From assembly GCA_019636615.1 (NCBI GenBank), contig JAHBXF010000002.1, positions 746,001 through 810,000 of the forward strand: a stretch of 64,000 bases of DNA, given 5' to 3'. The stretch is from Phycisphaeraceae bacterium (GTDB lineage: Bacteria > Planctomycetota > Phycisphaerae > Phycisphaerales > UBA1924). Below the pieces are notes generated by a model that was not told the DNA's origin, did no database searches, and worked only from the letters and a program-made list of their open reading frames with translations. Positions 1,929 to 61,445 of the stretch are shown here, one piece after another (positions within the stretch are counted from its first letter, which is position 1; every line of letters begins with the position of its first letter). A program made the position numbers and the translations under genes.

Positions 1929-1948
1929 GAACCTATCGTACCGGCCCG

Positions 1949-3858: not shown

Positions 3859-3910
3859 CCGGCACCCCGCGAACATAGCCTCGGGGGCACGCTCCGCAGA
3901 GCCGTGCCGG
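3859..3910. terminator. Possible inverted repeat between convergent genes
   Basis: CCGGCAC at 3859-3865 pairs with GTGCCGG at 3904-3910 across a 38-base loop, in the 59 bp between the convergent mlaD and permease genes. The loop is long and there is no T-run, so this is only a weak terminator candidate. Confidence 0.25.
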
Positions 3911-3917
3911 CGGGCGG

Positions 3918-30878: not shown

Positions 30879-31009
30879 GTGTGACTCCTCGCTGCTTTCC
30901 GACCCTGAAAAGAAGATCCGCCGCGCCCTTGTGACGGGGCGCGGCGGATGATTCATCGGTACAGCGGTCTGGGTGGTTCAGCCCGTTTGTAGTGATCGCA
31001 ACGATTCGT

Positions 31010-44938: not shown

Positions 44939-45451
44939 TCACCTGCCGATCGAGAGCGTGTTGGGCTTGGCCTGAACGCGTTGCCCCTCCATCGACGTGA
45001 ATGCACCGATGACATCGACCGATTGCTTCGGCAGGCGGTCTGTGCCCCCGTCTTCGAGCAGGCTCATGCGGAACGTATAGCCCGGGCCGGGAGCGGCCGA
45101 GATCTGCGCCCGTCTCGCGGTCTCCGGCGGAATTCTCCACGCCCGAACGACCTCGCCGCTGGTATTCACCAGCCGGAACTCAAACGAGCCAGCAATTGCA
45201 ACGCTTCTGGGATAGGGGCTCTGGTCAAAGATGTAGACCGTGACCACGAACGTATCCGGGTAGCCGTTGCCGTCGCTGTCGTCGGGCAGGTTGGTTGCCA
45301 TGAACAAGCCGCCCGGGCGGGGCTCGCTCGGGGGCGGGCCGATCGTGGGCTTGCTGTTCGATCCCGAGTTGTCTGCCACACAGCCGCCGAGCAGGAGTAT
45401 CGCGGCTGCCACCACCCCCCGTGCTGCGGCATTGATGAGTTCGGGTTTCAT
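44939..45451 (-). CDS. Small lipoprotein coupled to the giant secretin
   Basis: A 170-residue predicted lipoprotein from ATG 45451, which overlaps the giant secretin stop by ATGA. Signal peptide ends in lipobox LGGC (Cys27). The mature part begins with a Ser/Pro/Gly-rich linker and then a beta-rich domain: 'FVVTVYIFDQSPYPRSVAI', 'SFEFRLVNTSGEVVRAWRIP', 'YTFRMSLLEDGG'. 'DDSDGNGYPD' resembles a calcium-binding loop of the thrombospondin type 3 kind. Position and outer-membrane targeting make it a candidate secretin pilotin or accessory factor; no pilotin family was recognised. Confidence 0.75.
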   Translation of the reverse strand: MKPELINAAARGVVAAAILLLGGCVADNSGSNSKPTIGPPPSEPRPGGLFMATNLPDDSDGNGYPDTFVVTVYIFDQSPYPRSVAIAGSFEFRLVNTSGEVVRAWRIPPETARRAQISAAPGPGYTFRMSLLEDGGTDRLPKQSVDVIGAFTSMEGQRVQAKPNTLSIGR

Positions 45452-48400
45452 GGGCGAGGTCCCATCGGCTCCCTGCGCGGCGGCGGGGCTGTCGTCGGTG
45501 TAATCCGCACGCTCGGCGACTGGTCTTCGATGACCGCGGGCCCGCCGCTGGGCCCCGATGGACCGGCCGGGTCGGTGATGGGCCAGTCTGAATGGTGCTG
45601 TTCGGGGGGCCATGGCCAGTCGCTCGCGCCGTCGCCCGGCTGGCTTGTTTTCTGCCGCAGATTCTTCACGTCTTCACGGATGCGTTCGAGATAATCGAGC
45701 ACGCGAGTGGGGTCTTCCATGCGATCGACAGACTGGTCTGTGATGGCCCCGACCGTCACTTCAGACGACCCCACAACGCCCGGGATGATGCGGGGCGTGA
45801 CGATCACGAGCAGTTCGGTCTTACGGGCCTCGTCTTGCTTGCTGCGGAACGGAAGGCCGATGACAGGAATATCACCGATGATGGGCACCTTGGTGCGACG
45901 CTGCTCCATGGTGGTCTGAATAAGACCGCCGATGACGATGGACTGCCCATCCTTCACCGTGACCACGGTGTCAACGCTCCGCTTCGAGATGACCGGGGCG
46001 GTCTGGTCTCGGTTGATCTGCGTGGTGCGGTTGGTCAGTTGGGAGATGGAGGGGCTGATCTCCATGCGCACGAAACCGTCGTCGCTGATCGAGGGCGTCA
46101 CGTTCATGATGATGCCCACCGGGATGCGCTCGACGGACGAAATTAGCGTGCCGACATTGCTGCGCTCGGTGCTGCCCGCGACACCGATCTCATCGCCTAC
46201 GTTGATCTCGGCGGGCTGATTGTTGTTCACCGTGACCTGCGGGTTGCTCAGCACCTCGAGTTTGCCCTGCGCTTCGAGCGCACGCACGAGAATGCCAAAG
46301 TCGGCCGATGTCACCGAGAGGTTCGGCACGCCCAGCGCGGTGGCGACCCCCGAGCCCGCCCCCAGGAACCCGATCCGCGCGGCATCGCCGCCGAGGGGCC
46401 CGATGTTGAAGTCCATGCCCCACTGCTGGCTGTTGTCGAGCGTGACTTCGGCCAGAAGCACCTGGATCATCACCTGCGGGGGCGGCGTGTCGAGTTCCTG
46501 CACGATGCCCAGCACGGCGGACATATACCGCGGCGAGGTTGAGATGACCAGTTTGTTCGATTTCTCATCGCCCACCACGGTCACTTCCTGCTCGAGACGA
46601 CGCATGAGCGAGCCGGTGAGCTGCGGTCCCAGTGTGGACCGCTCGGCATCGACTTCGCCGCGGAAGTAACTGCGCAGGGTTGTTTCGATCTCTTTGGCTT
46701 TCGCGTTGCGGAGGTTGTAGACGCGGCGCTCGCGGTCATTGGCCTGAATGGCGTCGATCTCCTGGATGATCTGACGCACCAGCGCGAGGTACTCGTCCGT
46801 GCCAGAGACGATGAGCGTGTTGGTGCGCAGGTCGACGGCGATCGAGAGTTGCTGACGCTCATCGGGCACCGCCGTGACCGACGTGCCCGCGAGCGAGGCC
46901 GTGTCAGAAACGTCTTCTCCGGCCGCATCCATCCGTCGCTGCCCCGCGGGCAGCAGAACCATGGCGTTGCCCCGCTGCTCGAGCCTGAACGTGTCTCGCA
47001 GCAGGTCGGCCATCTGGCGAGCATCGGCGTTCACCAGCGTGAAACGCTCGATTTTCCGTGCGCCCGCCGATGACCGCTCGATGTCCTCGATCATTTCAGA
47101 GATCAACGCGACCATCGGGTCGGGGGCCGTGATCCAGATCGAGTTGGTGCGGGGGTCGGCGGTCAGCGTGACCTGATCGCGGATGGCGCCGTCGATCTCC
47201 GCCTCGGTGGGCGGGCGGCCGGTCTGGCCGACGATGTCGCCCGCGACCCGATCACGCAGGAACATCAGCCGCGTGGCCTGCCTGGCCCCAACGCCGCTGC
47301 CACCGCCGACGGGCCGGCCCGCGATGACCGACTGAACAAGGTTCACCACTTCAGAGGCGTTCGCGCTCTTGAGTTCGATCCAGCGGATCTGCTGTCGCGC
47401 CGCGACCTCGGCGCTGTCCAGACGCTTCGAGAGCGCGCGAAGTTCGATCATGTCCTGCTCATTGCCGGAAATGATCAACGAGTTCAAACGCTCGTTGGGC
47501 GTCACCGAGACCGCGCCGGGCCCTCTGCGCTGCAACTCACGCTCGATATAGAGCCCGTTGAGTGAGACCGCGACCTCGGCGGCACGCGCCTTGCTCAACT
47601 GCACAATATCGACGCGCTCACCGGCGGCGAGTTTGGCCGAATCGGCCGTGAGCGCGGCGACAAGTTCTCGCACAACCTGCAGGTTCTCGTCGCTGCACGC
47701 CACGATGAGCATGTTGCTCGTCGGTTCGGCCTCGATGCTGAACGCATCCAGCGGCGTGCGAACCGCGCCCCCCTGGGCCGCCGCCGAGATCCGCTCACGC
47801 ATCAGCCGGTCGATGCGCGGGGCGAGTTGCCGAACGTCAGCATTCGTCACCGGGATGACGTGCAGCCCGACCGAGAAGTTGCTCTGGTCGCTGTCCAGCG
47901 TGGCGATCATGCCTTCGAGCACGGCGAAGGTGCGGTGGCTGGTCGTCACGACCAGCGAGTTGGTGCGCTGGTCTGGCGTCACGACCAGCCTGTCCTCGGG
48001 CCGCTGATCGGGGAGCGTCTCTCGCTGGCGGAAGACATCGCGGAGCATCGCCGCCACGCGGTCTGCCGCGGCGTTGCGCAGCGGGAAGATGCGCACCGTG
48101 TTGGCGGCAGAGGCCGCCTCAACGTCGAGCATCCCCGCGAGCGCCTTGACGACTTTGAGATTCGCCGGCGTGCCGACAACGATCAGCGCATTGAGCTGTT
48201 CATCCGCGCTGATCACAAGCCCTGTGACGGGCGCGAACAGGTCTGCCTGAACCGTGTTGTTCTTGTCGGCGGGGTTGACGGGCGCTCCGTCGATGGACAT
48301 GCGGAGACGGCCGAACTGCCTTTGCAAACCCATCGCATCGGGCGAGAGCGTGAGGCCGCGAACAAGCACTTCCTGGAGTTTGCGCGCGAGCACGGTGGCG

Positions 48401-51400
48401 TCCGCGTGCTTCATGGGCAGAATGAGCGGCTCGATCCAGTTTGCCGCGCGATCGCTGTCGAGGTCTTTGACGAGCACCTCGACCAGCGCGACCGCCTCTT
48501 CTCGGCCGGCCACAATGAGCGTGTTCGTGCGGTCGTCAACGGTCACGGCGATGTCGCCCGCCAGCGCCTGCCCGGTGGCCGTGGGCGGCAGGCCCTGCCG
48601 CCGGGTGCCGGGCAGCCGACGCAGCGCCTCGCCCTGGCTGAACAACTGGTCGACAACTTGTTTCACGCGCGTCGAAGAGGCGTTGGAGAGCGTGAAGATG
48701 CGCACGATGACCGCGTCGCCGATGGGGAGCGTGTCGAGCAGTTTCACGACCTCGCGTACCGCTTCGATGTTGGCGGGGGTCGATGAAGCAACGATGGCGT
48801 TCGCTTCGACATCCGCCACAAGCCGTATGGGCTTGCTGAGGTCAAAGGCGGCCGCCGGCTGATCCAGCCCCGAGCGCGATATCCCAAGCCGGCGAACATG
48901 CTCAGCCAGCGCCCTGGCTGGCCCGGTATCGACCGCCTGATCGGTGCCGGTGCGCAGCATGGCAGTCAGCGTTTGAACCAGCGGCCCCGCGGAGGCCATC
49001 CGAAGTGGGATGAACGCCATGGACTGCGTGCTGTCGACCGGCGCCGCATCGATCGCCTTGACGAGTGATTCAAGCGTTCTCGCGTCCGCCGGCCCGCCGA
49101 TGACGGCGATCGCACGCCGGCTGGAAAGAGTCACGATGGTGACCGGCTCAGAAACGATGCCCGGACGATCGGGCGCCTGCGGCCTGCTCACGCCCATCTC
49201 GTCGAGGGTGCGCTTGATGTCCGCGGGCGCGTTGTTGGTGATGTCGATGATCGTGACACTCTGCCCAAGGCCCCCCAGGGGCCCCGCGGCACCGTCTCCA
49301 TCCGCGCCGTCCTGTCCCGGGGGCAGCATGTCGAGTTCACGCACAACGCGGGTGATTTCGACAAGCAGCCGCTCGCTGCAGGCAACCACCAGCGAGTTGC
49401 TGCTGCGATCAATCTCGATGGCGATGGTCTCTCCGAGTTGACGTGCTGTCTCGCCGAAGGTCGTCAGGAGCGTTTGCCGCAGCCTGCCCGCGGGAACGTG
49501 GCGCAGGCGGATGACGTGCGGCAGGATCCGTCCGGCGGCCCCTTGATCCTGCAGCGCCTCGGCCAGGGCCTTGATCTGCAGGAACTTCTCTTCATCCGCT
49601 CGCACGATGAGACTCCCCGACGCGTCGTCGCCCACGATGACAACGCTGCGCGGCCCGGTGACACCCGAGGGTCCAGCCCCTGGCCCACGCTCCGGACGGG
49701 GCATGAACATGTCCCGCAGGGTCGCTGCGATGGTCGATGGCTTGCCGGTGCGAAGCGGGATGATTCGTGCCGCGGGCATGTTCGCAAAGCCCGCAACATC
49801 CAGTTGCTTCACAACCTCGGTGATGCGTTCCATGTCGCGTGAGGCGGCAAAGATGATCAGCGAGTTGGTGATGGTTTCGGCGGATATCGTGGGCGGTGCC
49901 TCGATCTCGGCCAGGGCGGTCGCCTCGGTAACGCCCGTCGCTCGCCGGTCAGCGGCCTGACGCTGCGCCATCATCGCCTGCTGGCGCTGCGCCTGCTCCA
50001 GTGGGGCACGGAAGCCTTCGTTGAGTGCGCGGGCAATTCCCGCCGCGTCCGAGTACGTGAGCGGGATGACGGCAAGACGCCGCCGCGTGTCGTACTCCTT
50101 CGTGTCGAGTTTTTCGAGCAGCGCACGGATGCCCTGCCATTCGCCCGCATCGGCGCGGATCACCAGCGAGTTGCTCAGCGGGTCGGGCAGCACAGTGACT
50201 GTTCTGGCCGCGGGGCTCGCCGCCTCCATCGCATATCGCCCGTAGAAGACGCGCAGCGCCGTTGCGGTCTGCTCGGCGTTGGCATACTCGAGTTTCACAA
50301 ACTCGGTGGTCCTCGCGTCGCCGGCGGGGGTGTCGAGTTCTGCGATGATCTTCTCGATCTCTTCGATCTGATCCGCCGGCGCGTAAAGCGTGATCGCATT
50401 GTCCTGCAGTGAATAGTCCACCGAGGCATCAGGGTCGTTCGGGTTGCGGGGCCTGGCACGCAGCACCTGCCGCACGGTCGATGCCACGTCCATCGCGTCG
50501 GCCGCTTTCAGACGGTACCGCCTGAAGACCGAGCCGCTCCGCACCGGTTCCTGATCGATCTTGCGTACCTGCTCCATCACCAACGCGATCGCCTCGCGGC
50601 TTCCCGTCAGCATGAGTGAGTTGCTGCGAACCACGGGCGTCACAGTGACCTTCACGTTCGCGGGCAGCGCGGCACGGATCGCCTGCGCGACGTCCTGCGC
50701 CCGTGCTGTCGCCAACGGCACCGTTTCGATATTCACATCCTCGGCACGCGGCGGCGCATCGATCTGCCTGAGCAACGCCGCGATTTCGTCAAACGACGCG
50801 GCGGAGGCCGAAAGAATCACCGAGTTCGTGCTCGGCTGGGGCGTGACGATCACACGCTCCTGCCCTGCTTCCCGCTGGCCGTACATGGTCCTGAGCACAT
50901 CCGAAGCGTCTCTCGCGGTGGCGTTCTGCAGCACGAACACTTCGATGCGACGATCTTTCCCCGCCTCGGGCTGATCGATCTGCGCGACAAGGTCATTCAC
51001 CGTGCCCAGTTCGCTCTCGGGCCCGGCGACGAGGAGCACGTTGCCGTCTGCCGAACCAACGATGTTGATCGGCGGCGCGTCAAGGCCCTGCGCCCGCGCA
51101 CGATCGGCGAAGAACTGCCGCAGGTTGCTGGCGACCCGGTCGGCACGCGCGTGGCTGAGCGTGATCGCCTCGATTTTTCTCGCTTCTGTCGCGTCGGCAG
51201 AGTCCAGTTGTGCGATATACGAAACCGCTTTCTCGACGTTCTCGCCCTTGCCGGCAAGAATGAGCGCTCGTCGCTGGCGGTCGATCTGAACCAGAACCCC
51301 CGCGGGGTCTGGCCCTCGCCACGGTCGCCAGCCGGGCGTCGAGAAGGCCCGTTCGAGAACTGACCTCAACGCGGCCAGGTCTGCCGTACGCACTTCCACC

Positions 51401-54400
51401 GAGCGTACGACCGTCTCGGCACGCCCCGACGCGGGCTGGTCCATCGCGGAGATGAGCCGCTCGACCACTTCGATCTGTTCACCCTTGCCGATGAGAATGA
51501 TGCTGTTTGATGGCTCGTTGGTCTCGATGTACAGGTGCTGATCATCGCCCTGCTGCTGCCGCCCGCCGCCCCAGACTGAAGTCCAGCGGATCTCGTCGGC
51601 GATGTTGCGCAGCGACTCTCCAAGTTCGCTCACGCTCGCGTGGCGCAGCGCCACAATGCGGAACTGGAAATCCTGAACCGGCGTCGGGCTGTCGAACGTG
51701 GCCACGAGCGACTTGACCTGCTCAAAGTCTTCATCCGCCGCCGCGACAAGCACAGTCCCGGTTCGCTTGTCTCCGGCGACGGCCACCCGGTTCGTCACAC
51801 GCTGTCCTGGGCGAGAAGAGGCATTGGCACGCTCGGTGAAAAACCGCTGCAACGCCGCCGCGACCACGGCCGCGTCGGCGCGTTCGAGTTTCACGGCTCG
51901 CACGGGCAGCCCGCTGGTCTCCGCCGCGTCGATCTGTGCGATCAACGAGCGAACCCGCTCCATCTCATCCTTGGGCGCCCTCACCACGAGCAGGCTAGAG
52001 CCATCCTGGGCAGAGATCCGCAGGCGGTCCTTTTTCGCGGCATCCCGCCCGATGATCACCTCGTCGATGGCTCTCTGGATCGTGCTGGGCGTCGCCTGCT
52101 GAAGCGTGAAGACGGCAGTCTCCTGCGAAGGGTCCTCCACACTCGCGTCGCTGGTTTCGAGCAAACGCACAACATCCTGGTGTTGGCCCGCCGTCGCCGC
52201 GACGAGAAGGCTGTTCGTGCGATCTTCGGCGATGAACCGTGGCGTGGGAGTATCGGTGGCGCCCGCGAACTGCCGCTGGGCATCAAAGGCGGACTGGAGC
52301 GTGCGCGCCATGTCCGCAGACCTCGCGTACGTCAGCGAATACCGCCGGATCGCCATCCGGTGGCGCGTCGGCGTCTGGTCGAGCGTTTCGATGAACCTGT
52401 CGAGCACCGCGAGGGCTTCGCTGGGCGCGGCGATGATCAGCGAAGAGCCTGATGGATCTGCCACCGCTCGCACGCTTGCGGGGTCGATTCGCATCGGTTC
52501 GGCCCCCTCGATCGCGACATCGAGCATGCGCGTGCGACGGGCCTGGGCCCCGCGGGGGTCTTCCGCGAAGAGATCGCGGATCGCCTGCATGGCACGCGCG
52601 GCGGTGATGTTCTCGAGCGGATACACCTTCACCGCGACGGTTCGCGCCGTGTCCATCTGGGCGATGCTGGTGATCAGCATCCCCACCGTCTCAAAGTCGG
52701 TATCGTTGCTCAGCACGATCAGCGCGCCACCGGCAGGATCGGCGAGAACACTCACCGGCCCGGTGAAACCCCCGCCCGCGGCTCCGGCGCGGCCCACTTG
52801 GGTGATCGTCTGCTGCAACAGCGACGCCAGGCCGCTGGCCTCGACGCCCCTCGGCAAGGCGACAACCCGCACGCCAACCGGCTCTGACGGCATTTCTCGC
52901 TGCAACTGTTCAGCGAGCGCGGCAAGCCGCTCGGTCTGGCGAGGGGCACCGATGAGAAGCAGTGTATTGGTGCCGGGATCAACGGCGATCGTGATCTGAT
53001 CATCCGCCGATTCGTCTTCCGAAACCACGGCTTTCACAGTCGGCTTCGCGGGAGTAACGCTCTGCTGCGCCGCCGGCGGCTCGGCCTGTTGCGGAGACTC
53101 AGCCCCCGACGCCCGGGCCAGAGGTGCCGGATTCTGCGACACCGGCGGGTCTTCATGGGCTGATTCGCCCGCGAACGCTTCGGGCGCTTCGACGACCACC
53201 GTACCGAAGACAATCGCGCTCAAGGCCAGCGCACGCCAGTCGCCGCCCGCGGCCGCCTGCTGCGATGTTCGCTCAACTCCTGATGGGCTCAGCATCGATC
53301 GCCCTCCCGGTTGGGTCTCTTCACCGCTGTGCCTCATGCTCTGCTTCTTGGGAGCGCCGCCCCCGCCGCCGGGCGTGGGTTCGTCCGGGTCTGTGTTCTC
53401 TCCACCGTTGGTGCGTGACTTCTGACGGCGCAGAAGTTCATCGGTCGTGAGAACCTCGACCTTGGCCCCGCCGCTCTGCTCGCTCATGCGGCGCAGCGTG
53501 CGTGCGAGCATCTCGGCATCAACTTTCGAGCGATCGACGGGCACCATGCGCATCTGACGGGTGCTCATCGCCGCTGCTTTGTCCAGCGTGCCAGCGAGTT
53601 CTTCGATGGTTGCCATCTGCTGCGCGGTCGCGCGAACAATCAGCGAGTTGCTCACCGCATCGACGCGAACCGTCGGGGCCGCCGCCGTCGATGCGTCTTC
53701 CTCAAAGACCGCCGCGATGTTTGCCGCGAACTGCGCGGCCTCGGCGTTGCGCAGGGTGATCACACGCAGTTGCCGCTGCGCACCTTCGTTTGATTCCGCT
53801 CGGTCGAGCGATTCCACGACCTGCACCGCCAGGTCGAGCATCGCCGTGGGCCCGCTGACGACAACCGCGTTCGTGCGCGGATCCGCGGCCACCCGCACGC
53901 GCGGGCGTTCTTCGGCGCCACGCGAGAGCGCCTGAACCCTCGCCCACTCGGGCAGCCTGTCGAGCGCCGACTCGCGTGCCAGCACGCCTTCGAGCACCGG
54001 CGCGAGCGCCTCGGCGCGGCCGTGCTTGAGCACGATGGTGCGAACCCCGACGCCATCCTTATCCGCGGCAACATCGAGCGAGTTCACCAGCGACTCGGCT
54101 CTTTCGATCTGCGTACGTGTGCCGACCACCACCAGCGTGTTGCTCGCGGCCTCCGGCGTCACCGTCGCCTCGGGCTCGCCGGCGACGCTCTGCGCGCGAA
54201 CCGCCTGCGAGACCGCGGCCGCCGCGCTCTCGGCGCTGCCGCGCAGCATACGGAACACACGCACCTCGGGGGCCCCCGCGACCGATTCAGAGTCGAGAGA
54301 CTTGATCAGGCCGTCGGCCACTGCGAGGATCTCTCGCGACGCGGTCACCAGAAGCGTGTTCGACGGCGCATCCGCGGTCACCTCGACCAGGTTCACGTCG

Positions 54401-57400
54401 TCGGGCACCGGAGTACCCGAAGCCCGCGCCGCCTCTCTGGCCCGCCCCGAGAGCACCCGCTCGACAAGCGGCTGCATGCGCTCCGCCCTGGCGCGCACGA
54501 GCGCGTACATCTTCAGTTCAGAGTTGGTCTCAACCCATGAATCAACACGCTTGACCACCTCTTCAACGTGCGTGAAGATCGCCTGAGGGCCGCTGACGAT
54601 CAGCGTTCGAGTGCCCGGCTCTGAAGATATCGTCACGGGCGCGCGGGCAGACTGTCCCGCGTTGCCGAGCGAACCGCTGGAGGCGAGTGTGCGCAGCGTG
54701 CCCGCCAGTGTGTTCACGTCGGCCCTGGTCAGCCGGTACGTGCGCACGAGCAGATCTTCCGTCATCTGCGCCTGGTCAAGACTCTTGACGATCTGCTCGA
54801 AGCCCGCCAGCCGCTTCGCCGGGGCATCAACGATGAGCGAGTTTGTCGCCCTGTCGGCCCGCACCACCACTTCGCGCGGGGGCCTGAGGTCCGGCCTGGG
54901 CTGGCGTGTGCGCGGGTCCAGGGGCATCTGAGGCTCGGGGAACATCTGGTCGATGGTCTGAGCCAGTTCTTCGGCCCTGGCGACTCGAAGCGGAAAGATC
55001 CTGATTTCTCGGCCCTCTCCACCAGTGGCGTCCGTCTCGTTGAGTTCATCAACGATCGCCTCGATCTCGGGTAGAAGATCCGCGTGCGCAGAGACCACGA
55101 GAGTGTTTGTGCCCGGGTCTGCCTCGATATTCACCGGCTGCTTGCCGCGCTGCTCGATCGGTCTGCGGTCATACTCCCTCTGAAGCACCGCCGCCATGTT
55201 CTGAGCGTCGGTAGACCGCAGTTTGAGAATCCGCATCGGCGGCTTCTCGGCGCTCTGGCGAGCGTCAAGGCTGCGTGCGAGGGCCTCGATCACCGCCATC
55301 TGCCCGGGCTGGGCGGCCACCATGATCGAGTTTGTCGATTCGATCGCTTCGATCACCGGCTCTGGCCCGCCCCGGATCATCATCGTCTCGCTGCTGGCGA
55401 CCATGTCCGAGAGAAACGCCACAACCTCTTCGGCCCTGGCCAGCCGCATCTCGATCAGCCGGACCTCTCTCGCCGGGCCGGCCTGCCGCTGAAGTTCGTC
55501 CATCACCCTGGTGAAACGATCCATCGCGTCTTTGTCGGCCACAACCATCAGCGAGTTGCTCGTCTCGTCAACGGTGATGTCGACAGGGTTCGCGTCCGGG
55601 ATCTGGCTGACCTGCGCCTGATAGATCTCTGTGGCACGGTCACGCACCTTCGCCGCCTTCTCGTTGGCGATCGGGAAGATCCTCAGCGATTTCTCCACCG
55701 GGGCCAGCGCAAGATCAGAGAGCACCTGTTCCACGGTCGAGAACGTGTGGTCGTCGCCCGCCACGATCAATGTGGCGCTCTTGGGCTCGACTTCGATCAG
55801 CACCTGCACGGGCTGCTTGCCGGTCTGCGCGGGCTCAGAGAGAATGCCGCGCTGCGCCATCGATCGCAGCGTGGCCGCCACAGCGTCCAGGCTCGCGCCC
55901 TTGACGTGGTATGTGCGCAGCGTCGCTCGCACGGGCATCTCGACGCGGTCGAGTTTCGCGGCCAGTTCACGCAGCGCCTCCATCCGTTCCGCCGGCGCGT
56001 CGATGATGATCGCGTTGCTCTGCGGTTCGGCAGAGACCTGCACCTCGCGCGGCTGCTTGAGCCAGGGCTGCGGCCGGCCCAGCCGATCGGTCGGCACCGG
56101 CGGCTCGGGGTAGAGCCTGTCGAGCGCCGCCGCGACATCCACCGCCTTGGCCACCTTCAGCGGGAAGATCTCGGTCACACGCTTGGCGGTGGCGCGATCA
56201 CGGTTGATCTCTTCGACAAAGTCCCTGATCTCCTCGAAGAGGTCGGGGTGCGCCGAGACAATCAGCGTGTTGGTCGCGGCGTCCGCGCGAACGTCGACGG
56301 GCTTGGCCGCGCGGTCGGCCTGCGGTCTGCGGTTGTACTGCTCGACCAGCATCGCGGCAATGGCCGGCGCCTCGGCGCTGCGCACCTGAAGAAGTTTCAG
56401 CGCCGGCGGCGTGCCGCTCTCGAGCCTGTCGATCCGTTCGAGCAACTCGGCCACAACACCGTGCTGCGCATCCTCGGCGGTGACGAGGATCGAGTTGGTG
56501 CGCTCGATCACCCGCAGCGTCGGCGGCGGCACGCGCCTCGCCGGGTCGGCGGGTTCGGCCTCACGCAGGAGCGCGGTAAGGTCTTCGATGGCTCGCGGGG
56601 CGGCGATGTTCTTGACATCAAGCACGCGGGTCCGTCGTTCGGGGGGCGAGAACTGCTGCACCTGAGTCAGAGTTTCAGCAAACATCGCCACGCCGCCGGC
56701 AGAGCCGGAGATCACGACGCTTCCCGAAACCTCGTCGAGCTCCGTGGTGATCGGCCCGGCCTCCTGGGCGGTCCGTCCCCTGGCGCGTTGTTCATACAGC
56801 GATGTCGCGCGTTCGATGGCTCCCTTGGGGTCGGTGCCGCTCAATCGCAGGATGCGGACATCGCGCCCCCGCACATCCGGCGCATCGACCTGCTCGATCA
56901 GCCCCTTGATGACCGCGAACTGCGACGAAGCCGCACGCACAATGAGTGTGCGCATCTCATCGAGCGCCTCGAACTGCGGAGCCTGCACCGGCGCACCGCC
57001 GCCTTCGAGCATCGCCGGCGCGAGCCTGGCCAGTTTCGAGGCGGCCACACTGGGCGCGACCGACTCGAGCGTGAACAGCCGCGTCTCGACAGCGCCGGCC
57101 AGCGACGTCCGAACCGTTCGCAGCACACCCTCAAATCTGGCCTGCGCCTCGGCGCTGCCCACAACCGTCGCCACACCCGTTTCGCCCTCCACCGAGAGCG
57201 CGATCCGCAGGGCCGGCGTATCGGCGGTGGTGTCGTACAGCGCTTTCGCGGCCTCAAGGGCCCGGGCGGTCGTGGAGGCATCAAGCCGCAGCAGACGCAC
57301 CTCGCGCTGCCCGGTGGTCGGCGTGTCGAACGCCTCAACAAGCCCGCTGATCATCGTCACGTCGCTGTCGTTGCCCAGGATCACCAGCGATCGCCCATCC

Positions 57401-58698
57401 GGCGAGGCCGTATACCTCAGCAGCCCGCGTGTGGGCCCGAGCATCTTCGCCAGCAGTTGCTCCGCCTGAGCCGCCGTGATGTGCTCGAGCGCGACCGAAA
57501 CCGAGCGCCGTTCCTGACGCATCCCGCCCTGACCGCCCATCGCAGGATCGGCCTGCCGCAGCAGATCCTCTGCCTGCGCCAGCAGGTTTGCCGGGCCGAC
57601 GATCGACAGCCGGCCGGTGTCGGGCAGCGCGATCACTGTCGGACGGCGCCGGGGCTCAAGGCCGGCAAAGAGTTGATTGACCTGCGCCGCGCCCGCCTCG
57701 GGCGTGATGCCCGAGAGGGCAAACGTCGCCATGCGCACATCGCCGGCGCTTTCAGGAACGTCGAGCAGCGCGATGAGTTCTTCAACCGTTTTGATCCGGC
57801 CCTGGGTGCCCACCGCGACGATGGCGTTCGTGCGAGGATCGGCGGCCAACTGCACGCCGGTAACCTGCTGTTCCTGAATCGTCCGTTTCTGCCCGTCCTT
57901 GTCCACGATGACCGTCGTTACCCGCTCACCGACCAGCCCCCTGAGCGCCACGAGCACGGCGTCGCTCTGCGCGTGCTTGAGCGGAAAGAGTCGAAAGGCA
58001 GAATCAACCGGACGTACCGAATCGATCGCGCGCACCACCTCACGAATGCGACGCACCTGCGCCGCGGTCTCCACGATCACGACCATGTTCTGCACCGGTG
58101 CCGCGAAGACGCCGCCGAACCCCCCCACCATCGGCCTGATCTGCTCCGCCACCAACTCTGCGCGGGCGTTGTCGAGCGGGATGTTCACCGTGACGATGGT
58201 GTCCGGGGTCGCCTCCTCCAACTGTTCGACCGACACAACCGGGCTGGGCCGCTTCATCGAGTCCTGGATCGTCGCCAGGTAGAGGTACTGATCCTGCCGC
58301 CGAAGATGAACGCCGAACCTCTGTAGGTTGAGGTTCAAGATCGACAACGCATCCTGAACGCTGTAGGCCGTCGGGCTCACAAAGGTGATGGTGCCCTGTG
58401 GGGCCGGGGCCTCATAGATGATCGGCACCCCGGTCTGGCGCGCAAAGAAGTCCAGCACCTGGTCGATGGCGGCATCTTTGAAGTTGAAGGTCACCACCGC
58501 GCCCGAGGGCGCGGCCGGTGGCGCGGCACTGGCTTCGGGGGCCGGGGCGGGTGTCGGCTGCGCGGGCGCAGGGGCCGGGGCTTCAGGCTGGCCGGCAGTC
58601 TCTTCCTGGGCCATGGCGGCCGTCAACGGCAACGCCAGTCCTGCGCAGGCCGCCAGAGATCGAATCAAACCCGCTCGGGTGCGTGCCTTCCGCTGCAT
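45448..58698 (-). CDS. Giant secretin with about 46 N1-like periplasmic repeats
   Basis: A 4416-residue outer-membrane secretin, several times normal size. Signal peptide (about 1-30, 'AAMAQEE'), Ala/Pro linker (31-65), STN/N0 domain (about 67-145), then about 46 repeats of 65-110 residues (168-4073), each with a beta-alpha-beta-beta-alpha pattern and a core like 'DPRTNAIVAVGTQGRI' or 'ERTNSILVTAEDAQ'. Residues 4074-4330 are the secretin domain: 'VLSNPQVTVNNNQPAEINVG', 'PVGIIMNVTPSISDDG', 'VTVKDGQSIVIGGLIQ' and 'VPIIGDIPVIGLPFRSK'. A linker (about 1757-1899) splits the array. GAGGAGA precedes ATG 58698; the frame is uninterrupted for 13.2 kb. Operon context is PilMN, PilOP, GspI/J/K. Secretins form 12-15-mer pores; the long array should make an extended periplasmic stack. 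Confidence 0.93.
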   Translation of the reverse strand: MQRKARTRAGLIRSLAACAGLALPLTAAMAQEETAGQPEAPAPAPAQPTPAPAPEASAAPPAAPSGAVVTFNFKDAAIDQVLDFFARQTGVPIIYEAPAPQGTITFVSPTAYSVQDALSILNLNLQRFGVHLRRQDQYLYLATIQDSMKRPSPVVSVEQLEEATPDTIVTVNIPLDNARAELVAEQIRPMVGGFGGVFAAPVQNMVVIVETAAQVRRIREVVRAIDSVRPVDSAFRLFPLKHAQSDAVLVALRGLVGERVTTVIVDKDGQKRTIQEQQVTGVQLAADPRTNAIVAVGTQGRIKTVEELIALLDVPESAGDVRMATFALSGITPEAGAAQVNQLFAGLEPRRRPTVIALPDTGRLSIVGPANLLAQAEDLLRQADPAMGGQGGMRQERRSVSVALEHITAAQAEQLLAKMLGPTRGLLRYTASPDGRSLVILGNDSDVTMISGLVEAFDTPTTGQREVRLLRLDASTTARALEAAKALYDTTADTPALRIALSVEGETGVATVVGSAEAQARFEGVLRTVRTSLAGAVETRLFTLESVAPSVAASKLARLAPAMLEGGGAPVQAPQFEALDEMRTLIVRAASSQFAVIKGLIEQVDAPDVRGRDVRILRLSGTDPKGAIERATSLYEQRARGRTAQEAGPITTELDEVSGSVVISGSAGGVAMFAETLTQVQQFSPPERRTRVLDVKNIAAPRAIEDLTALLREAEPADPARRVPPPTLRVIERTNSILVTAEDAQHGVVAELLERIDRLESGTPPALKLLQVRSAEAPAIAAMLVEQYNRRPQADRAAKPVDVRADAATNTLIVSAHPDLFEEIRDFVEEINRDRATAKRVTEIFPLKVAKAVDVAAALDRLYPEPPVPTDRLGRPQPWLKQPREVQVSAEPQSNAIIIDAPAERMEALRELAAKLDRVEMPVRATLRTYHVKGASLDAVAATLRSMAQRGILSEPAQTGKQPVQVLIEVEPKSATLIVAGDDHTFSTVEQVLSDLALAPVEKSLRIFPIANEKAAKVRDRATEIYQAQVSQIPDANPVDITVDETSNSLMVVADKDAMDRFTRVMDELQRQAGPAREVRLIEMRLARAEEVVAFLSDMVASSETMMIRGGPEPVIEAIESTNSIMVAAQPGQMAVIEALARSLDARQSAEKPPMRILKLRSTDAQNMAAVLQREYDRRPIEQRGKQPVNIEADPGTNTLVVSAHADLLPEIEAIVDELNETDATGGEGREIRIFPLRVARAEELAQTIDQMFPEPQMPLDPRTRQPRPDLRPPREVVVRADRATNSLIVDAPAKRLAGFEQIVKSLDQAQMTEDLLVRTYRLTRADVNTLAGTLRTLASSGSLGNAGQSARAPVTISSEPGTRTLIVSGPQAIFTHVEEVVKRVDSWVETNSELKMYALVRARAERMQPLVERVLSGRAREAARASGTPVPDDVNLVEVTADAPSNTLLVTASREILAVADGLIKSLDSESVAGAPEVRVFRMLRGSAESAAAAVSQAVRAQSVAGEPEATVTPEAASNTLVVVGTRTQIERAESLVNSLDVAADKDGVGVRTIVLKHGRAEALAPVLEGVLARESALDRLPEWARVQALSRGAEERPRVRVAADPRTNAVVVSGPTAMLDLAVQVVESLDRAESNEGAQRQLRVITLRNAEAAQFAANIAAVFEEDASTAAAPTVRVDAVSNSLIVRATAQQMATIEELAGTLDKAAAMSTRQMRMVPVDRSKVDAEMLARTLRRMSEQSGGAKVEVLTTDELLRRQKSRTNGGENTDPDEPTPGGGGGAPKKQSMRHSGEETQPGGRSMLSPSGVERTSQQAAAGGDWRALALSAIVFGTVVVEAPEAFAGESAHEDPPVSQNPAPLARASGAESPQQAEPPAAQQSVTPAKPTVKAVVSEDESADDQITIAVDPGTNTLLLIGAPRQTERLAALAEQLQREMPSEPVGVRVVALPRGVEASGLASLLQQTITQVGRAGAAGGGFTGPVSVLADPAGGALIVLSNDTDFETVGMLITSIAQMDTARTVAVKVYPLENITAARAMQAIRDLFAEDPRGAQARRTRMLDVAIEGAEPMRIDPASVRAVADPSGSSLIIAAPSEALAVLDRFIETLDQTPTRHRMAIRRYSLTYARSADMARTLQSAFDAQRQFAGATDTPTPRFIAEDRTNSLLVAATAGQHQDVVRLLETSDASVEDPSQETAVFTLQQATPSTIQRAIDEVIIGRDAAKKDRLRISAQDGSSLLVVRAPKDEMERVRSLIAQIDAAETSGLPVRAVKLERADAAVVAAALQRFFTERANASSRPGQRVTNRVAVAGDKRTGTVLVAAADEDFEQVKSLVATFDSPTPVQDFQFRIVALRHASVSELGESLRNIADEIRWTSVWGGGRQQQGDDQHLYIETNEPSNSIILIGKGEQIEVVERLISAMDQPASGRAETVVRSVEVRTADLAALRSVLERAFSTPGWRPWRGPDPAGVLVQIDRQRRALILAGKGENVEKAVSYIAQLDSADATEARKIEAITLSHARADRVASNLRQFFADRARAQGLDAPPINIVGSADGNVLLVAGPESELGTVNDLVAQIDQPEAGKDRRIEVFVLQNATARDASDVLRTMYGQREAGQERVIVTPQPSTNSVILSASAASFDEIAALLRQIDAPPRAEDVNIETVPLATARAQDVAQAIRAALPANVKVTVTPVVRSNSLMLTGSREAIALVMEQVRKIDQEPVRSGSVFRRYRLKAADAMDVASTVRQVLRARPRNPNDPDASVDYSLQDNAITLYAPADQIEEIEKIIAELDTPAGDARTTEFVKLEYANAEQTATALRVFYGRYAMEAASPAARTVTVLPDPLSNSLVIRADAGEWQGIRALLEKLDTKEYDTRRRLAVIPLTYSDAAGIARALNEGFRAPLEQAQRQQAMMAQRQAADRRATGVTEATALAEIEAPPTISAETITNSLIIFAASRDMERITEVVKQLDVAGFANMPAARIIPLRTGKPSTIAATLRDMFMPRPERGPGAGPSGVTGPRSVVIVGDDASGSLIVRADEEKFLQIKALAEALQDQGAAGRILPHVIRLRHVPAGRLRQTLLTTFGETARQLGETIAIEIDRSSNSLVVACSERLLVEITRVVRELDMLPPGQDGADGDGAAGPLGGLGQSVTIIDITNNAPADIKRTLDEMGVSRPQAPDRPGIVSEPVTIVTLSSRRAIAVIGGPADARTLESLVKAIDAAPVDSTQSMAFIPLRMASAGPLVQTLTAMLRTGTDQAVDTGPARALAEHVRRLGISRSGLDQPAAAFDLSKPIRLVADVEANAIVASSTPANIEAVREVVKLLDTLPIGDAVIVRIFTLSNASSTRVKQVVDQLFSQGEALRRLPGTRRQGLPPTATGQALAGDIAVTVDDRTNTLIVAGREEAVALVEVLVKDLDSDRAANWIEPLILPMKHADATVLARKLQEVLVRGLTLSPDAMGLQRQFGRLRMSIDGAPVNPADKNNTVQADLFAPVTGLVISADEQLNALIVVGTPANLKVVKALAGMLDVEAASAANTVRIFPLRNAAADRVAAMLRDVFRQRETLPDQRPEDRLVVTPDQRTNSLVVTTSHRTFAVLEGMIATLDSDQSNFSVGLHVIPVTNADVRQLAPRIDRLMRERISAAAQGGAVRTPLDAFSIEAEPTSNMLIVACSDENLQVVRELVAALTADSAKLAAGERVDIVQLSKARAAEVAVSLNGLYIERELQRRGPGAVSVTPNERLNSLIISGNEQDMIELRALSKRLDSAEVAARQQIRWIELKSANASEVVNLVQSVIAGRPVGGGSGVGARQATRLMFLRDRVAGDIVGQTGRPPTEAEIDGAIRDQVTLTADPRTNSIWITAPDPMVALISEMIEDIERSSAGARKIERFTLVNADARQMADLLRDTFRLEQRGNAMVLLPAGQRRMDAAGEDVSDTASLAGTSVTAVPDERQQLSIAVDLRTNTLIVSGTDEYLALVRQIIQEIDAIQANDRERRVYNLRNAKAKEIETTLRSYFRGEVDAERSTLGPQLTGSLMRRLEQEVTVVGDEKSNKLVISTSPRYMSAVLGIVQELDTPPPQVMIQVLLAEVTLDNSQQWGMDFNIGPLGGDAARIGFLGAGSGVATALGVPNLSVTSADFGILVRALEAQGKLEVLSNPQVTVNNNQPAEINVGDEIGVAGSTERSNVGTLISSVERIPVGIIMNVTPSISDDGFVRMEISPSISQLTNRTTQINRDQTAPVISKRSVDTVVTVKDGQSIVIGGLIQTTMEQRRTKVPIIGDIPVIGLPFRSKQDEARKTELLVIVTPRIIPGVVGSSEVTVGAITDQSVDRMEDPTRVLDYLERIREDVKNLRQKTSQPGDGASDWPWPPEQHHSDWPITDPAGPSGPSGGPAVIEDQSPSVRITPTTAPPPRREPMGPRP
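45451..46479 (-). other. Secretin barrel domain of the giant protein
   Basis: Residues 4074-4416: the conserved gate/barrel region (about 257 residues) and a Pro/Trp-rich tail ending '.PGPRP'-like. It resembles ordinary GspD/PilQ secretins. Stored here with the high coordinate first because it is read leftward; the span is 45451 to 46479. Confidence 0.85.
46480..58197 (-). repeat. Array of about 46 secretin N1-like domain repeats
   Basis: Protein-level tandem repeats with average spacing near 85 residues. Each unit begins with a strand such as 'RIFPL' or 'RVITL', then a helix containing A-x2-V/L-A-x2-L, a variable loop, then 'V.ADPRTN.LIV.A' and a closing helix ending in 'I..LD'. Identity between most units is low, so the repeats are old. 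The count is by eye and may be off by a few. Confidence 0.8.
52981..53430 (-). other. Internal linker with signal-peptide-like segment in the giant secretin
   Basis: Residues about 1757-1899 contain no N1 repeat. They are Gly/Pro/Gln/Ser/Glu-rich, with a hydrophobic segment 'RALALSAIVFGTVVV' followed by 'APEAFAGESA' (53158-53241), which looks like a signal peptide with an AxA cleavage site. It splits the second half of one repeat from its first half. Confidence 0.7.
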
Positions 58699-58857
58699 GC
58701 ACGTCTCCTCTTCCGCAACGGGGAATCGGGCCCAGTCCAGGCCAGAGACCCATCCGCGGTCATTCTGATGTGCCCACGAGACGAGAAAATCGAACACTCT
58801 CGCCCGCCGAAGCGGGCCCATCACCCCCATCCGCCCGTTCCGGTCGGACAGAGGTGC

Positions 58858-59862
58858 TCATCGCGACTGTATCGGCCCCGCCGGGGTGCGTGCGGCCAGG
58901 GTCTGGCCATTCCTAACCTCAAACTGTTCGCCATTGATCTCGACAACCGCGGTTTCGCCAGAGGCGCTGACCAGCACGGCGTCCAGCACACGCCCCCCGG
59001 GCGAGAGCGTGAGCCGCTGACCATTTTTGAGATTTTGAAAAAAGACCTCCGCCCCCTCCCGCCCCATCAGCACCCCTGTCAGCCGCCAATCCTCATAGGG
59101 CTGTGGCCGCGGTGCGGGAATCTCGGGCGGCTTCGGTTGCGTGACGTCCGCCGCGGCAACAACCGGCACAACCGGAGCAGGGTCACGTCTGCGGAAGGGT
59201 TGACGCACAGCAAGCGCCGAAGCCACTTGCGCCACCCCTTCGTTCATCGCCATGAAGACCGGCTCGGGGTCTGCCCCCTTCGAGAAGTCCGGCGCATAAA
59301 TCGTCGCGACATCGAGGCGAAGTTCACACCGCTCACGATCCCTCCCCACGGGCTTGATGGAAAAACCTTCGATCCGGTGGATCCACCCCTGAGCCTGCGC
59401 CGTGGCGATCGTCCGAAGCACCTGCTCGAGCGTGCCCGTTCCACGCACACTGCCCCGCACGGCCGCGAAGTCCGCGGGGCGACGCAGCGCGGTTTTGAGC
59501 CCCCGGGGCACGCTCTGCACATTGATCAACGGGTTCGTCTGGGGTTGCGGCTCACCGTGATCAACCGTGATCGATTCAAGTCCTTGTGACTCTGCGATTC
59601 TCGCCAGTCCATCCCGGAACCGGGCGCTCATCGTGTCAAACTTCGGCCCGAGCGTTCTCTCTCCGGCGGCACGAACTCTGTCGGCCACCTTGAACTGATC
59701 CCGCATTTTCCCTTCAAGGTCTGCCGCGGACGTGCGTGAAGCCCGGATCTCATCGAGCAACTTCGCGCGCGGCGTCGCGTAGGCGTTCACGTACACCCCC
59801 CACATCACGCCTGCGACCAGCAGAACTCCCCCGAGCCTGATCAGCGTCTTAGTCCTGTTCAT
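58858..59862 (-). CDS. PilO-PilP-like fusion (GspM/GspC-like) inner-membrane protein
   Basis: A 334-residue inner-membrane protein. One N-terminal membrane helix (about 8-28), a helical and ferredoxin-like periplasmic part (about 35-230, PilO/GspM-like), a Pro-rich linker (about 235-255) and a C-terminal beta domain (about 258-325, 'WRLTGVLMGREGAEVFFQNL') like PilP or the GspC homology region, which docks onto secretin N0. So one polypeptide may join the platform to the secretin. Start overlaps the PilMN stop by ATGA (59859-59862). Assignment rests on architecture and neighbours; sequence identity to known families is low. Confidence 0.72.
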   Translation of the reverse strand: MNRTKTLIRLGGVLLVAGVMWGVYVNAYATPRAKLLDEIRASRTSAADLEGKMRDQFKVADRVRAAGERTLGPKFDTMSARFRDGLARIAESQGLESITVDHGEPQPQTNPLINVQSVPRGLKTALRRPADFAAVRGSVRGTGTLEQVLRTIATAQAQGWIHRIEGFSIKPVGRDRERCELRLDVATIYAPDFSKGADPEPVFMAMNEGVAQVASALAVRQPFRRRDPAPVVPVVAAADVTQPKPPEIPAPRPQPYEDWRLTGVLMGREGAEVFFQNLKNGQRLTLSPGGRVLDAVLVSASGETAVVEINGEQFEVRNGQTLAARTPAGPIQSR

Positions 59863-61445
59863 GGCCGACGCCCCTCCCCGCCCGTTGCCGGGCGGCTCGG
59901 CTGCGTCTCAACCGCCGGGGTCAGCCCGTTGGCGGTGAGTTGAAAGGCAAACTCGGTAGGCACGTCCGGCCCGCGACTTTCCACCTCGTAAAGGCGTGTG
60001 CCCAGCAGCCGTGTTCGCATGTCGGAAGAGATCTCGCGCGAGGTCACCCTGCCGTTGACATCCAGCGTGATGCGGGATGCCGGCCGCCATGACCCGCCCG
60101 GATACGCCCCGCTGGGTGAAAACGACACGCCCAGGGATCCCTTGCCACGAAGTTCGTCCAGTTGTCCAAGGGTCGCGTCGGGCATCTGGTCGACGACATG
60201 GTTGATGTAGCCCATCCAGTCCACCCTGCCCGCCTCCCACTGCTCAAAGTGGCTCACGCGTGCGTGCTGCACGATGAACCCTTCATACTCCTTCCGCACG
60301 CGATCTTCGTTGGCTCTGGCAGCGACGAGTTCGGCACGGAGTTTGCCCAGTTGTTGATCCGCAACCACATACGCCCCCCCGCCCAGCACAATGAGCCCCA
60401 GCACACCCGCCAGCAGCCGCTGTCTCAGCGCTCCGTCATTCGCCTTCGCCCGGCGTGGACGGGCAAAGTCCATCATCGTTCCGCCCTGGCGTGCCTCGAT
60501 CACCATCCCCAGCAGCGCACTCGATCTGGCCCTGTCCTCCTGGCTCACCGAGCCATCGACCTCGGCGAGCCCCTCAGAGCCCGCCGAAACCCAGCCGCAC
60601 CGCAGCGCATCGCCGCAGGCCCGACCCACGGCGTCGGCCAGCGTCGGCTCTCCGACAACCGCGACAGTTTCGATATCAGGCCCTTCGTGAATCGAGCGGT
60701 AGCCCATCCATGTGCGTTTGGCCTCGACCGCCAGCCGCTCTGCGAACGCGCTCTCGCCCGACGCGTCATCGGGGCGAGGGGTATCCGCCGCCCGCGAGAA
60801 CGTGAGCCGGCCATCTTCAACGACCACGAACTCTGTCGAGTTTGCGCCCGCCGCGACACCCAGCACCGCGCCGCCCCGCTTGTGCGACATCTCCGCAAGA
60901 ATCGCGGCGACCCCGAAAGCCCGAAGCCCGATCCTCCCCATCTTCATGCCCGCCGCGCGCACAACCCTGCGGCACCAGTCCACCCGCGAGCCGGGCATCG
61001 CCCCTGCCAGCACCCACAGCGCGGCGCCGTCCCCATGCGGGGCACGCCGCTCATAGGCAAAATCGATCGCCGCGTCGTCCGCCGAGAAGGCCAACTGACG
61101 CATCATCGCCAGGTTCACGGCGCCGACCACATCGGGGTCCACCAGCGATGCTCCCTCGGCCGCAGGAATCGGCAGCGGCCGCAGCACGGCATCGGTCCTC
61201 GATGCCGCGATGATCGCGGACGCCCCTCTGGGCCAGTTCAGCGTGCCGAGTTGTTCTTTGAGCCATCCCCCAACCCGCTCAGCATCATCGGGGCGAACGT
61301 CCGCAGGCAGCGGCAAGAGTGCGTAACCCTTCAGGTGCGGCCGCGCACCCCCGGTTGCGACCCACGCCAGCCCAAGCCGACCGGATTCGAGTTCAAGCAC
61401 GATGGTGTCGCGAGGACCGGGCAACTTCGACCTCCTTGTCAGCAC
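59859..61445 (-). CDS. PilM-PilN fusion (GspL-like) platform protein
   Basis: A 528-residue protein. Residues 1-320 resemble the actin-like ATPase PilM/GspL cytoplasmic domain ('GGAVLGVAAGANSTEFVVVE' near 191-210 as phosphate-binding loop). One membrane helix (about 344-363, 'LLAGVLGLIVLGGGAYVVAD') then a periplasmic coiled coil and ferredoxin-like PilN/GspL domain (about 370-528). GspL naturally has this two-part form, while PilM and PilN are usually separate. It anchors the secretion ATPase to the platform. Leftward operon; gap of 54 bp to the GspK-like gene. Confidence 0.8.
   Translation of the reverse strand: MLTRRSKLPGPRDTIVLELESGRLGLAWVATGGARPHLKGYALLPLPADVRPDDAERVGGWLKEQLGTLNWPRGASAIIAASRTDAVLRPLPIPAAEGASLVDPDVVGAVNLAMMRQLAFSADDAAIDFAYERRAPHGDGAALWVLAGAMPGSRVDWCRRVVRAAGMKMGRIGLRAFGVAAILAEMSHKRGGAVLGVAAGANSTEFVVVEDGRLTFSRAADTPRPDDASGESAFAERLAVEAKRTWMGYRSIHEGPDIETVAVVGEPTLADAVGRACGDALRCGWVSAGSEGLAEVDGSVSQEDRARSSALLGMVIEARQGGTMMDFARPRRAKANDGALRQRLLAGVLGLIVLGGGAYVVADQQLGKLRAELVAARANEDRVRKEYEGFIVQHARVSHFEQWEAGRVDWMGYINHVVDQMPDATLGQLDELRGKGSLGVSFSPSGAYPGGSWRPASRITLDVNGRVTSREISSDMRTRLLGTRLYEVESRGPDVPTEFAFQLTANGLTPAVETQPSRPATGGEGRRP

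What the first reader, a model, noticed from the sequence alone, without database searches (positions are those of the whole stretch)
45448..58698. A secretin of about 4416 residues with roughly 46 N1-like repeats
The sequence shows a single uninterrupted frame with a signal peptide, an N0/STN domain, about 46 N1-type domains counted by eye, and a normal secretin barrel at the C-terminus. Known secretins (GspD, PilQ, YscC) have one to four N domains. At roughly 2.5 nm per ring, as in known structures, 46 rings would give over 100 nm of periplasmic stack; that is arithmetic, not a measured value. It may bridge an expanded periplasm, project inward as a scaffold, or fold in another way. I know of no described secretin like it.
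Basis: partly seen in the sequence, partly recalled or inferred. Interest (0 to 1): 0.95.

Follow-up and report, generated by a model that had tools for sequence, protein, structure and literature searches.

The report
Giant 46-ring type II secretin
A bacterium related to Phycisphaerales encodes a 4,416-residue form of GspD, the outer-membrane channel of type II secretion, with 46 ring-type domains where ordinary relatives have about three; they would likely stack into a tube over 100 nanometres long, and a whole family of such giants turns out to exist.

Summary
Observation confirmed. Window 45448-58698 (-) is one open frame of 4,416 codons: signal peptide (by eye), GspD-type N0, 46 N1-type (Secretin_N) domains, secretin barrel. 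Pfam alone finds 40 Secretin_N stretches; an HMM trained here finds 46, and 3 in 14 of 18 ordinary secretins. It ends a gspF-G-H-I-J-K-L-M/C-D operon, so it is the GspD of a type II secretion system. It is no assembly expansion: two searches found 334 and 264 homologues, and the 240 listed carry 18-64 N domains. Barrels of 35 giants fall on one branch apart from 15 normal-size GspDs of the class (99/90). Each domain is separately conserved and in order; 119 of 120 near homologues keep 25 domains between a mid-array insert and the barrel, while 9-27 lie before it. Some relatives split the array over two or three genes. A ten-domain slice folds (pLDDT 84) as GspD ring domains. Most likely the domains stack as rings into a conduit of roughly 115-155 nm; stacking, length and function are inferred, and domain packing was not predicted with confidence. 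The largest count I found in print is six rings (Thermus PilQ). New variant of a known kind.

The parts
45448..58698 (-). giant GspD-type secretin, 4416 aa (frame open from 58830)
58609..58698 (-). predicted signal peptide (residues 45-74 of the long frame; cleavage AMA/QE, by eye)
   Evidence: sequence; no signal-peptide program was run
58321..58488 (-). N0 domain (residues 115-170)
   Evidence: PF21305 E 3.4e-4, below cut-off; PDB GspD N0-N2 match 108-359, E 6.6e-6
46477..58182 (-). 46 tandem N1-type (Secretin_N, beta-alpha-beta-beta-alpha) domains, residues 217-4118, mean pitch 85 aa; 42 of 45 linkers are 4-9 aa
   Evidence: fold of residues 2305-3100
52996..53463 (-). loop insert in domain 21 (about residues 1790-1945), Gly/Pro-rich with one hydrophobic stretch; 25 intact domains follow it up to the barrel
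45784..46281 (-). secretin barrel (residues 4184-4349)
   Evidence: PF00263 E 5.5e-49; GspD chains in the PDB
45451..45756 (-). C-terminal Pro-rich tail after the barrel
   Evidence: sequence
58858..59862 (-). predicted GspM-GspC-like fused protein
   Evidence: no Pfam match of its own; its two halves are separate neighbouring ORFs in 6 of 18 normal-secretin loci; of those stand-alone ORFs the M type matches T2SSM_b in 2 of 2 (one over the cut-off), the C type weakly T2SSC in 3 of 8
59859..61445 (-). GspL/PilM-like protein
   Evidence: PF11104 E 0.006, below cut-off; homologue upstream in 49 of 49 loci
61500..62975 (-). GspK
   Evidence: PF03934 E 1.8e-7, over cut-off
62972..63613 (-). GspJ-like pseudopilin; a gene in the I place runs across the window's end, and H, G (T2SSG) and F (T2SSF) follow outside it (L006, G000:C2 809617-812812)
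   Evidence: N_methyl over cut-off, T2SSJ below it

Best explanation
The gene encodes the GspD secretin of a type II secretion operon whose periplasmic part carries 46 N1-type domains instead of about three, and these domains would likely stack as rings into a conduit of roughly 115-155 nm that is predicted to span an unusually wide envelope. Shown here: the domain content, the operon, the family and its single barrel branch, domain-by-domain conservation, a constant 25-domain outer arm and a variable inner arm, and single domains predicted with the fold of GspD rings. Inferred: about 15 chains (as in solved GspDs) assemble into one stack of about 7 MDa; N0 at the inner-membrane end docks on the GspM-GspC-like protein; the pseudopilus made from the operon's pilins works inside the tube as a long piston that pushes secreted proteins out without release into the periplasm; gain or loss of whole domains on the inner side changes the reach.
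For: 46 domains plus N0 and barrel. 42 of 45 linkers are 4-9 aa; the others are 15, 21 and the insert. Homologues of K, L and M (phmmer E up to 0.01) lie upstream in 48 of 49 loci with at least 6 kb of upstream DNA, and the order F-G-K-L-M of those found is kept in 49 of 49. Barrels of 35 giants against 15 normal GspDs of the class: one split, 99/90, 100% of 200 bootstrap trees. Domain i matches domain i: 44-46 of 46 in order in six 46-domain homologues examined; three 41-domain forms examined lack domains 7-11. 25 domains after the insert in 119 of 120 (one of the 120, P0002, is the window's own protein). Slice of residues 2305-3100: pLDDT 83.9, ten beta-alpha-beta-beta-alpha units; of the 8 best Foldseek hits (E 7.5e-10 to 2e-8) seven are GspD-type secretins and one is Deinococcus DR_0774, a type IV pilus-type secretin; single domains lie 1.2-2.3 A from GspD and PilQ domains. 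Split genes in three loci, export signals on nearly every piece by eye. Precedent: Thermus PilQ, six stacked rings, about 35 nm long, in a cell with a periplasm of about 70 nm (PMC5745081, PMC4463427, passages).
Against: pTM of the slice is only 0.35, and 17 of the 19 listed matches with more than 120 aligned residues have rmsd above 10 A, so domain packing is not predicted. No oligomer model could be run; the barrel-end model was never returned. 4 of 9 sampled genomes of the same family have no match at E 1e-60, and ordinary three-domain GspDs occur in other members of the order, so a long reach is not needed by all. No periplasm width is known to me for these bacteria; described Phycisphaeraceae isolates lack crateriform structures (PMC8882080, passages). 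No gspE lies in the operon; ATPase genes are elsewhere.
Confidence: 0.58

Rival explanations
1. Beads on a string: only the barrel and its nearest N domains likely form rings; the rest hang as flexible tethers that hold the inner-membrane machine to the channel and adapt to a periplasm of changing width.
For: pTM 0.35 and high multi-domain rmsd; planctomycete periplasm is variable in width (PMC5394234, passages).
Against: Linkers of 4-9 aa in 42 of 45 junctions leave little freedom; each domain is separately conserved (mean 27-86% per domain over 26 homologues), more than a tether needs; a pseudopilus without a guide over 100 nm is hard to imagine (reasoning, not a result).
Confidence: 0.2
2. 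Scaffold or cargo-store: the rings stack, but the tube does not bridge the two membranes in a straight line; the extra domains mainly bind substrates or envelope partners.
For: Secretin N domains are reported to bind substrates, GspC and the pseudopilus tip (PMC5646246, passages); domains differ strongly from one another (21% mean identity); the domain-21 insert sits at one fixed place.
Against: Length changes fall on the inner side and include whole five-domain blocks, which fits reach better than binding; the operon is that of a T2SS.
Confidence: 0.13
3. Neutral ratchet: domain duplications once accepted cannot be removed; the length has no special function.
For: Counts vary widely between subfamilies (18-64); giant and ordinary-size secretins coexist in the class.
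Against: One barrel branch, fixed 25-domain arm in 119 of 120, per-domain conservation.
Confidence: 0.07
4. Assembly or annotation artefact (repeat expansion, fused frames).
For: None found for this gene; a few relatives show broken frames (L044, L083).
Against: Two-contig genome with an unbroken frame, no tandem DNA repeats, same architecture in other assemblies.
Confidence: 0.01

Closest known systems
GspD/PulD/XcpQ/EpsD, secretin of the type II secretion system
   Same: Barrel (E 3e-46 to a PDB chain), N0-N1-N2 start and last N domain plus barrel at the end; gsp-type operon; ring-domain fold.
   Different: 46 instead of about 3 N1-type domains, 4416 aa instead of about 700-900; GspM and GspC predicted to be fused; loop insert in domain 21.
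PilQ of Thermus thermophilus (six stacked rings N0-N5)
   Same: Would work like it: extra beta-alpha-beta-beta-alpha domains lengthen the periplasmic stack in a wide periplasm (PMC5745081, PMC4463427, PMC8578077, passages).
   Different: Five N1-type domains against 46; type IV pilus/competence secretin, not the last gene of a gsp operon.
Normal-size secretins of the same class (L102-L119)
   Same: F, G and K homologues upstream in 15 of 18 loci; N0, three Secretin_N and barrel in 8 of 8 scanned.
   Different: 685-1090 aa, 3-6 N domains; separate barrel branch for the 15 used; M and C seen as two genes in 6 of 18 loci.
Long planctomycete secretins outside the class (L091 Gemmataceae, L092 Planctomycetaceae)
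   Same: Fall on the giant branch.
   Different: About 2000 aa with 11 and 9 N domains; long branch, placement within the giants only moderately supported (85/82).

Membership tests
T2SS secretin GspD (any length) | C-terminal secretin barrel | tested here: met
   PF00263 E 5.5e-49; best PDB chains are GspD
T2SS secretin GspD (any length) | N0 domain at the periplasmic start | tested here: met
   PDB GspD N0-N1-N2 chains match 108-359, E 6.6e-6 to 2.8e-5; Pfam N0 model only 20.9 bits, below cut-off
T2SS secretin GspD (any length) | N1-type domains between N0 and barrel | tested here: met
   40 Pfam stretches, 46 by own HMM, predicted fold of ten of them
T2SS secretin GspD (any length) | encoded with gspF-K pseudopilin and platform genes | tested here: met
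   T2SSF, T2SSG, T2SSK over cut-off; kept in relatives
T2SS secretin GspD (any length) | operon holds GspE ATPase | tested here: inconclusive
   none among the operon genes scanned; 14 PF00437 matches elsewhere in the genome, partner not identified
T2SS secretin GspD (any length) | GspC-type partner for N0 | tested here: inconclusive
   C half of the preceding gene resembles GspC by eye; T2SSC below cut-off in 3 of 8 stand-alone homologues, not in the window protein
T2SS secretin GspD (any length) | 12- to 16-fold oligomer in the outer membrane | not testable with these tools
   needs purification and cryo-EM
GspD of ordinary size | about three N1-type domains | tested here: not met
   46 here against 3 in 14 of 18 compared secretins; hence filed as a variant
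Type IV pilus secretin PilQ | AMIN domains and pilMNOPQ neighbourhood (definition recalled, from no call) | tested here: not met
   no AMIN in the Pfam scan; neighbours are gsp-type

The most novel reading that the evidence does not exclude
A genetically encoded periplasmic ruler: the longest bacterial secretion conduit known, a 7-MDa tube of some 46 (up to 64) stacked rings, made of an invariant 25-ring outer arm, a mid-tube collar or valve formed by the domain-21 loops, and an inner arm whose ring number evolves in whole-domain steps to fit the envelope; some lineages build the same tube from two or three separately exported proteins.
Probability: 0.35. Interest if true: 0.95.

Novelty: new variant of a known kind. 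Interest (0 to 1): 0.83.

Why it matters
The secretins described in the papers I saw have a few periplasmic rings, six at most; here the same part is repeated about ten-fold and kept domain by domain over many genera. If the rings stack, these bacteria push proteins through a tube far longer than any described, which would bear on how envelopes with large periplasms secrete, on how long a pseudopilus can work, and on how ring number sets the reach of a secretion machine. The natural series (3, 9-11, about 20, 39-50, 64 domains; one-piece and split genes) makes the link between ring number and envelope spacing directly testable.

Tried and rejected
Considered and rejected: assembly expansion; recent amplification of one repeat (mean domain identity 21%); giants as independent expansions of neighbouring normal GspDs (one barrel branch; the first tree, needed 3 changes, which I put down to two wrongly labelled rows: L022, 1469 aa with no N domain, and L044, the last piece of a giant whose frame is broken in its record; I relabelled L044 and dropped L022); mid-array hydrophobic stretch as a membrane span (weak, best 19-residue mean 1.64; above 1.0 in 85 of 120 against 38% of control windows, above 1.4 in 32 of 120 against 7%): left unexplained. 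A regular-expression search for the insert placed it in only 42 of 121 proteins, three of them wrongly, and was replaced by domain matching. Collinearity of P0001 with eight divergent giants is above shuffles but weak (z 2.1-5.3; 0-2 of 100 shuffles reach it). The GspM/C protein gave no useful PDB match. Paper searches for secretins with more than six N domains found none; most subscription journals and preprints are not held. Of 149 sampled genomes of the phylum, the 140 outside the class show at most 21 Secretin_N matches per genome (the tool scored at most 37 first-look candidates per genome).

Dropped before counts: the tree leaves out 9 of 60 rows (six long branches or misfits, three near-copies). 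Domain counts cover the 120 listed of 334 and the 120 listed of 264 hits. Alignment A1 uses 17 of 121 proteins; A2 and A3 use 49 of 60 and 49 of 57 segments found; A4 37 of 51; A5 16 of 18 plus the window. A5 was made from giants, so its scores favour giants.

Full report
1. What is there. The minus-strand frame 45448-58830 is open for 4460 codons; the ATG at 58698, preceded by GGAAGAGGAG and followed by a signal-peptide-like start, gives 4416 residues, 4386 after the apparent cleavage, 470 kDa. Pfam finds Secretin_N 40 times, the secretin barrel at 4184-4349 and a sub-threshold GspD N0 at 115-170. An HMM trained on the repeats finds 46 domains at 217-4118; domain 21 is interrupted by a loop insert. 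Control: the same HMM finds 3 domains in 14 of 18 ordinary secretins and 4-6 in the other four; Pfam gives 3 in 8 of 8 of those scanned. PDB sequence search places residues 108-359 on GspD N0-N1-N2 and 3996-4358 on the last N domain and barrel of GspD. The protein is therefore an ordinary GspD at both ends with about 43 more N1-type domains between.

2. Surroundings. Upstream on the same strand lie a gene of 334 codons, a PilM/GspL-like gene, gspK and a gspJ-like gene, then, across and beyond the window's end, a gene in the I place without a Pfam match, a pilin-like gene, gspG and gspF. Of 75 named loci, 49 (within L027-L090) have the array frame uncut at its start and at least 6 kb upstream; by phmmer with this operon's proteins (E up to 0.01) M and L homologues are there in 49, K, L and M in 48, F, G, K, L and M in 43, all eight in 32, and the order F-G-K-L-M of those found is kept in 49. 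The 334-codon protein looks like GspM fused to GspC: in 6 of 18 loci with normal-size secretins its two halves are separate neighbouring frames; such M-type frames match T2SSM_b in 2 of 2 tested (one over the cut-off), C-type frames match T2SSC below its cut-off in 3 of 8. No gspE is among the operon genes; 14 PF00437 matches lie elsewhere.

3. The family. A search with the whole protein gave 334 homologues, 120 listed, 3580-4897 aa; a second with a distant giant gave 264, 120 listed, up to 6165 aa. Own-HMM counts over the listed proteins run from 18 to 64 domains. Near relatives cluster at 50, 46, 41 and 39-40. In a sample of 140 genomes of the class, 84 have a match at E 1e-60; I take 50 of them as giant-type (348 bits or more; hand count from the listing): 33 with a frame of at least 3000 codons, 5 of 2000-2999, and 12 shorter, among them split genes and contig ends. 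Below that line (343 bits and less, so the score gap is small) no listed frame exceeds 1090 codons. In the window's own family 5 of 9 sampled genomes have it. In 149 genomes of the phylum more than 21 Secretin_N matches occur only in four genomes of the window's family and one of its order. Giant records with titles are Phycisphaerales, Phycisphaeraceae or other Planctomycetota, nearly all metagenome assemblies; two are titled as cyanobacteria; I saw no title naming a cultured strain among them. 12 of the 75 loci have no array of five or more domains.

4. Evolution. A maximum-likelihood tree of 51 barrels puts 35 giant-type rows on one side of a branch and 15 normal GspDs of the class on the other (99/90; 100% of 200 bootstrap trees). 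Six sampled genomes with a giant also have a second match of 814-1018 codons. I infer two long-separated secretin lineages with similar operons. In the 14 proteins of the window's subfamily examined, identity to the best-matching domain is 48-90% on average, against 21% between domains of one protein; three 41-domain homologues lack domains 7-11, one 40-domain form 7-12, and a 50-domain form has four extra after domain 17. Domains 9-11 resemble 14-16 (spacing five), a trace of block duplication. From the insert to the barrel there are 25 domains in 119 of 120 near homologues (23 in the other; P0002, one of the 120, is the window's own protein), while 9-27 lie before it: the outer-membrane arm is constant, the inner-membrane arm variable. 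Against eight distant giants the order of domains is weakly kept (0-2 of 100 shuffles reach the observed score), which agrees with one old long ancestor.

5. Split forms. In L018, L020 and L021 the array is spread over two or three consecutive genes (19+14, 22+12 and 7+14+14 domains), the barrel only on the last, and nearly every piece opens with a signal-peptide-like start by eye. Totals of 33-35 domains are close to one-piece giants. This speaks for modules that can assemble in trans.

6. Fold. Residues 2305-3100 with 49 homologous segments gave mean pLDDT 83.9 and ten beta-alpha-beta-beta-alpha units, the pattern reported for rings N1-N5 of Thermus PilQ (PMC5745081). Seven of the eight best Foldseek matches in the PDB are GspD-type secretins, the other is Deinococcus DR_0774, and single domains superpose on GspD and PilQ domains at 1.2-2.3 A. 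pTM 0.35 and rmsd above 10 A in 17 of 19 listed matches of more than 120 residues mean that the packing of neighbours is not settled. The barrel-end model could not be obtained.

7. How it likely works. Solved GspDs are mostly 15-mers (one search lists 15 chains per entry). Fifteen giant chains would weigh 7.05 MDa. Thermus PilQ with six rings is about 35 nm long and 15 nm wide in a cell with a periplasm of about 70 nm (PMC4463427), and its authors link ring number to periplasm width (PMC5745081). With an assumed 2.5-3.4 nm per ring, 46 rings come to about 115-155 nm; that is arithmetic. Planctomycete periplasm can be greatly enlarged by inward folds of the inner membrane (PMC5394234), though this was shown in species that, from memory, belong to another class, and described Phycisphaeraceae lack the crateriform structures seen there (PMC8882080). 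I therefore favour a transperiplasmic tube that guides a long pseudopilus and keeps substrates from leaking into a wide periplasm. The insert at a fixed place may form a collar or inner gate; this is a guess.

8. Known or new. [quoted passage not shown] A survey of huge proteins names Planctomycetota as rich in them, but the passages I saw name no secretin (PMC11573180). Automatic database names such as type II secretion system protein D exist. I found no paper that describes giant secretins. It is a new variant of a known kind.

Noticed in passing
window 31010-33388 (-): A second, ordinary-size secretin (792 aa; N0, one Secretin_N, barrel) beside a TPR protein (29658-30956); no gsp-type gene among the neighbours scanned.
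   Followed up: partly
L018 130-13912, L020 403-14815, L021 7119-19661: Giant secretin split into two or three consecutive genes, export signal on nearly every piece by eye; P0177 (2593 aa) is listed with Secretin_N and no barrel, though it may be a cut sequence.
   Followed up: partly
L007 744-19250 (-); P0178, P0179, P0180: Even larger relatives: 5812-6169 aa, 61-64 N domains.
   Followed up: partly
window 52996-53463: Loop insert with a moderately hydrophobic stretch in domain 21, at the same place (25 domains from the barrel) in 119 of 120 near homologues; role unknown.
   Followed up: partly
L006 9559-13035 (-): A fungalysin-type M36 metallopeptidase of 1158 aa close to the operon; a possible substrate of the system, untested.
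   Followed up: no
L091 936-7160, L092 5741-11818: Gemmataceae and Planctomycetaceae secretins of about 2000 aa with 11 and 9 N domains, on the giant barrel branch.
   Followed up: partly
window 55084-58326 (+): An antisense frame of 1080 codons inside the giant gene, probably a shadow of GC-rich codon use.
   Followed up: no
genome G000: 14 matches to the T2SSE/PilB ATPase family and five secretins: several type IV filament systems side by side.
   Followed up: no
L051, L076: Records titled as cyanobacteria (Cyanobacteria bacterium CYA, Leptolyngbya sp. PLA1) carry typical giant secretins; the titles are probably wrong.
   Followed up: no
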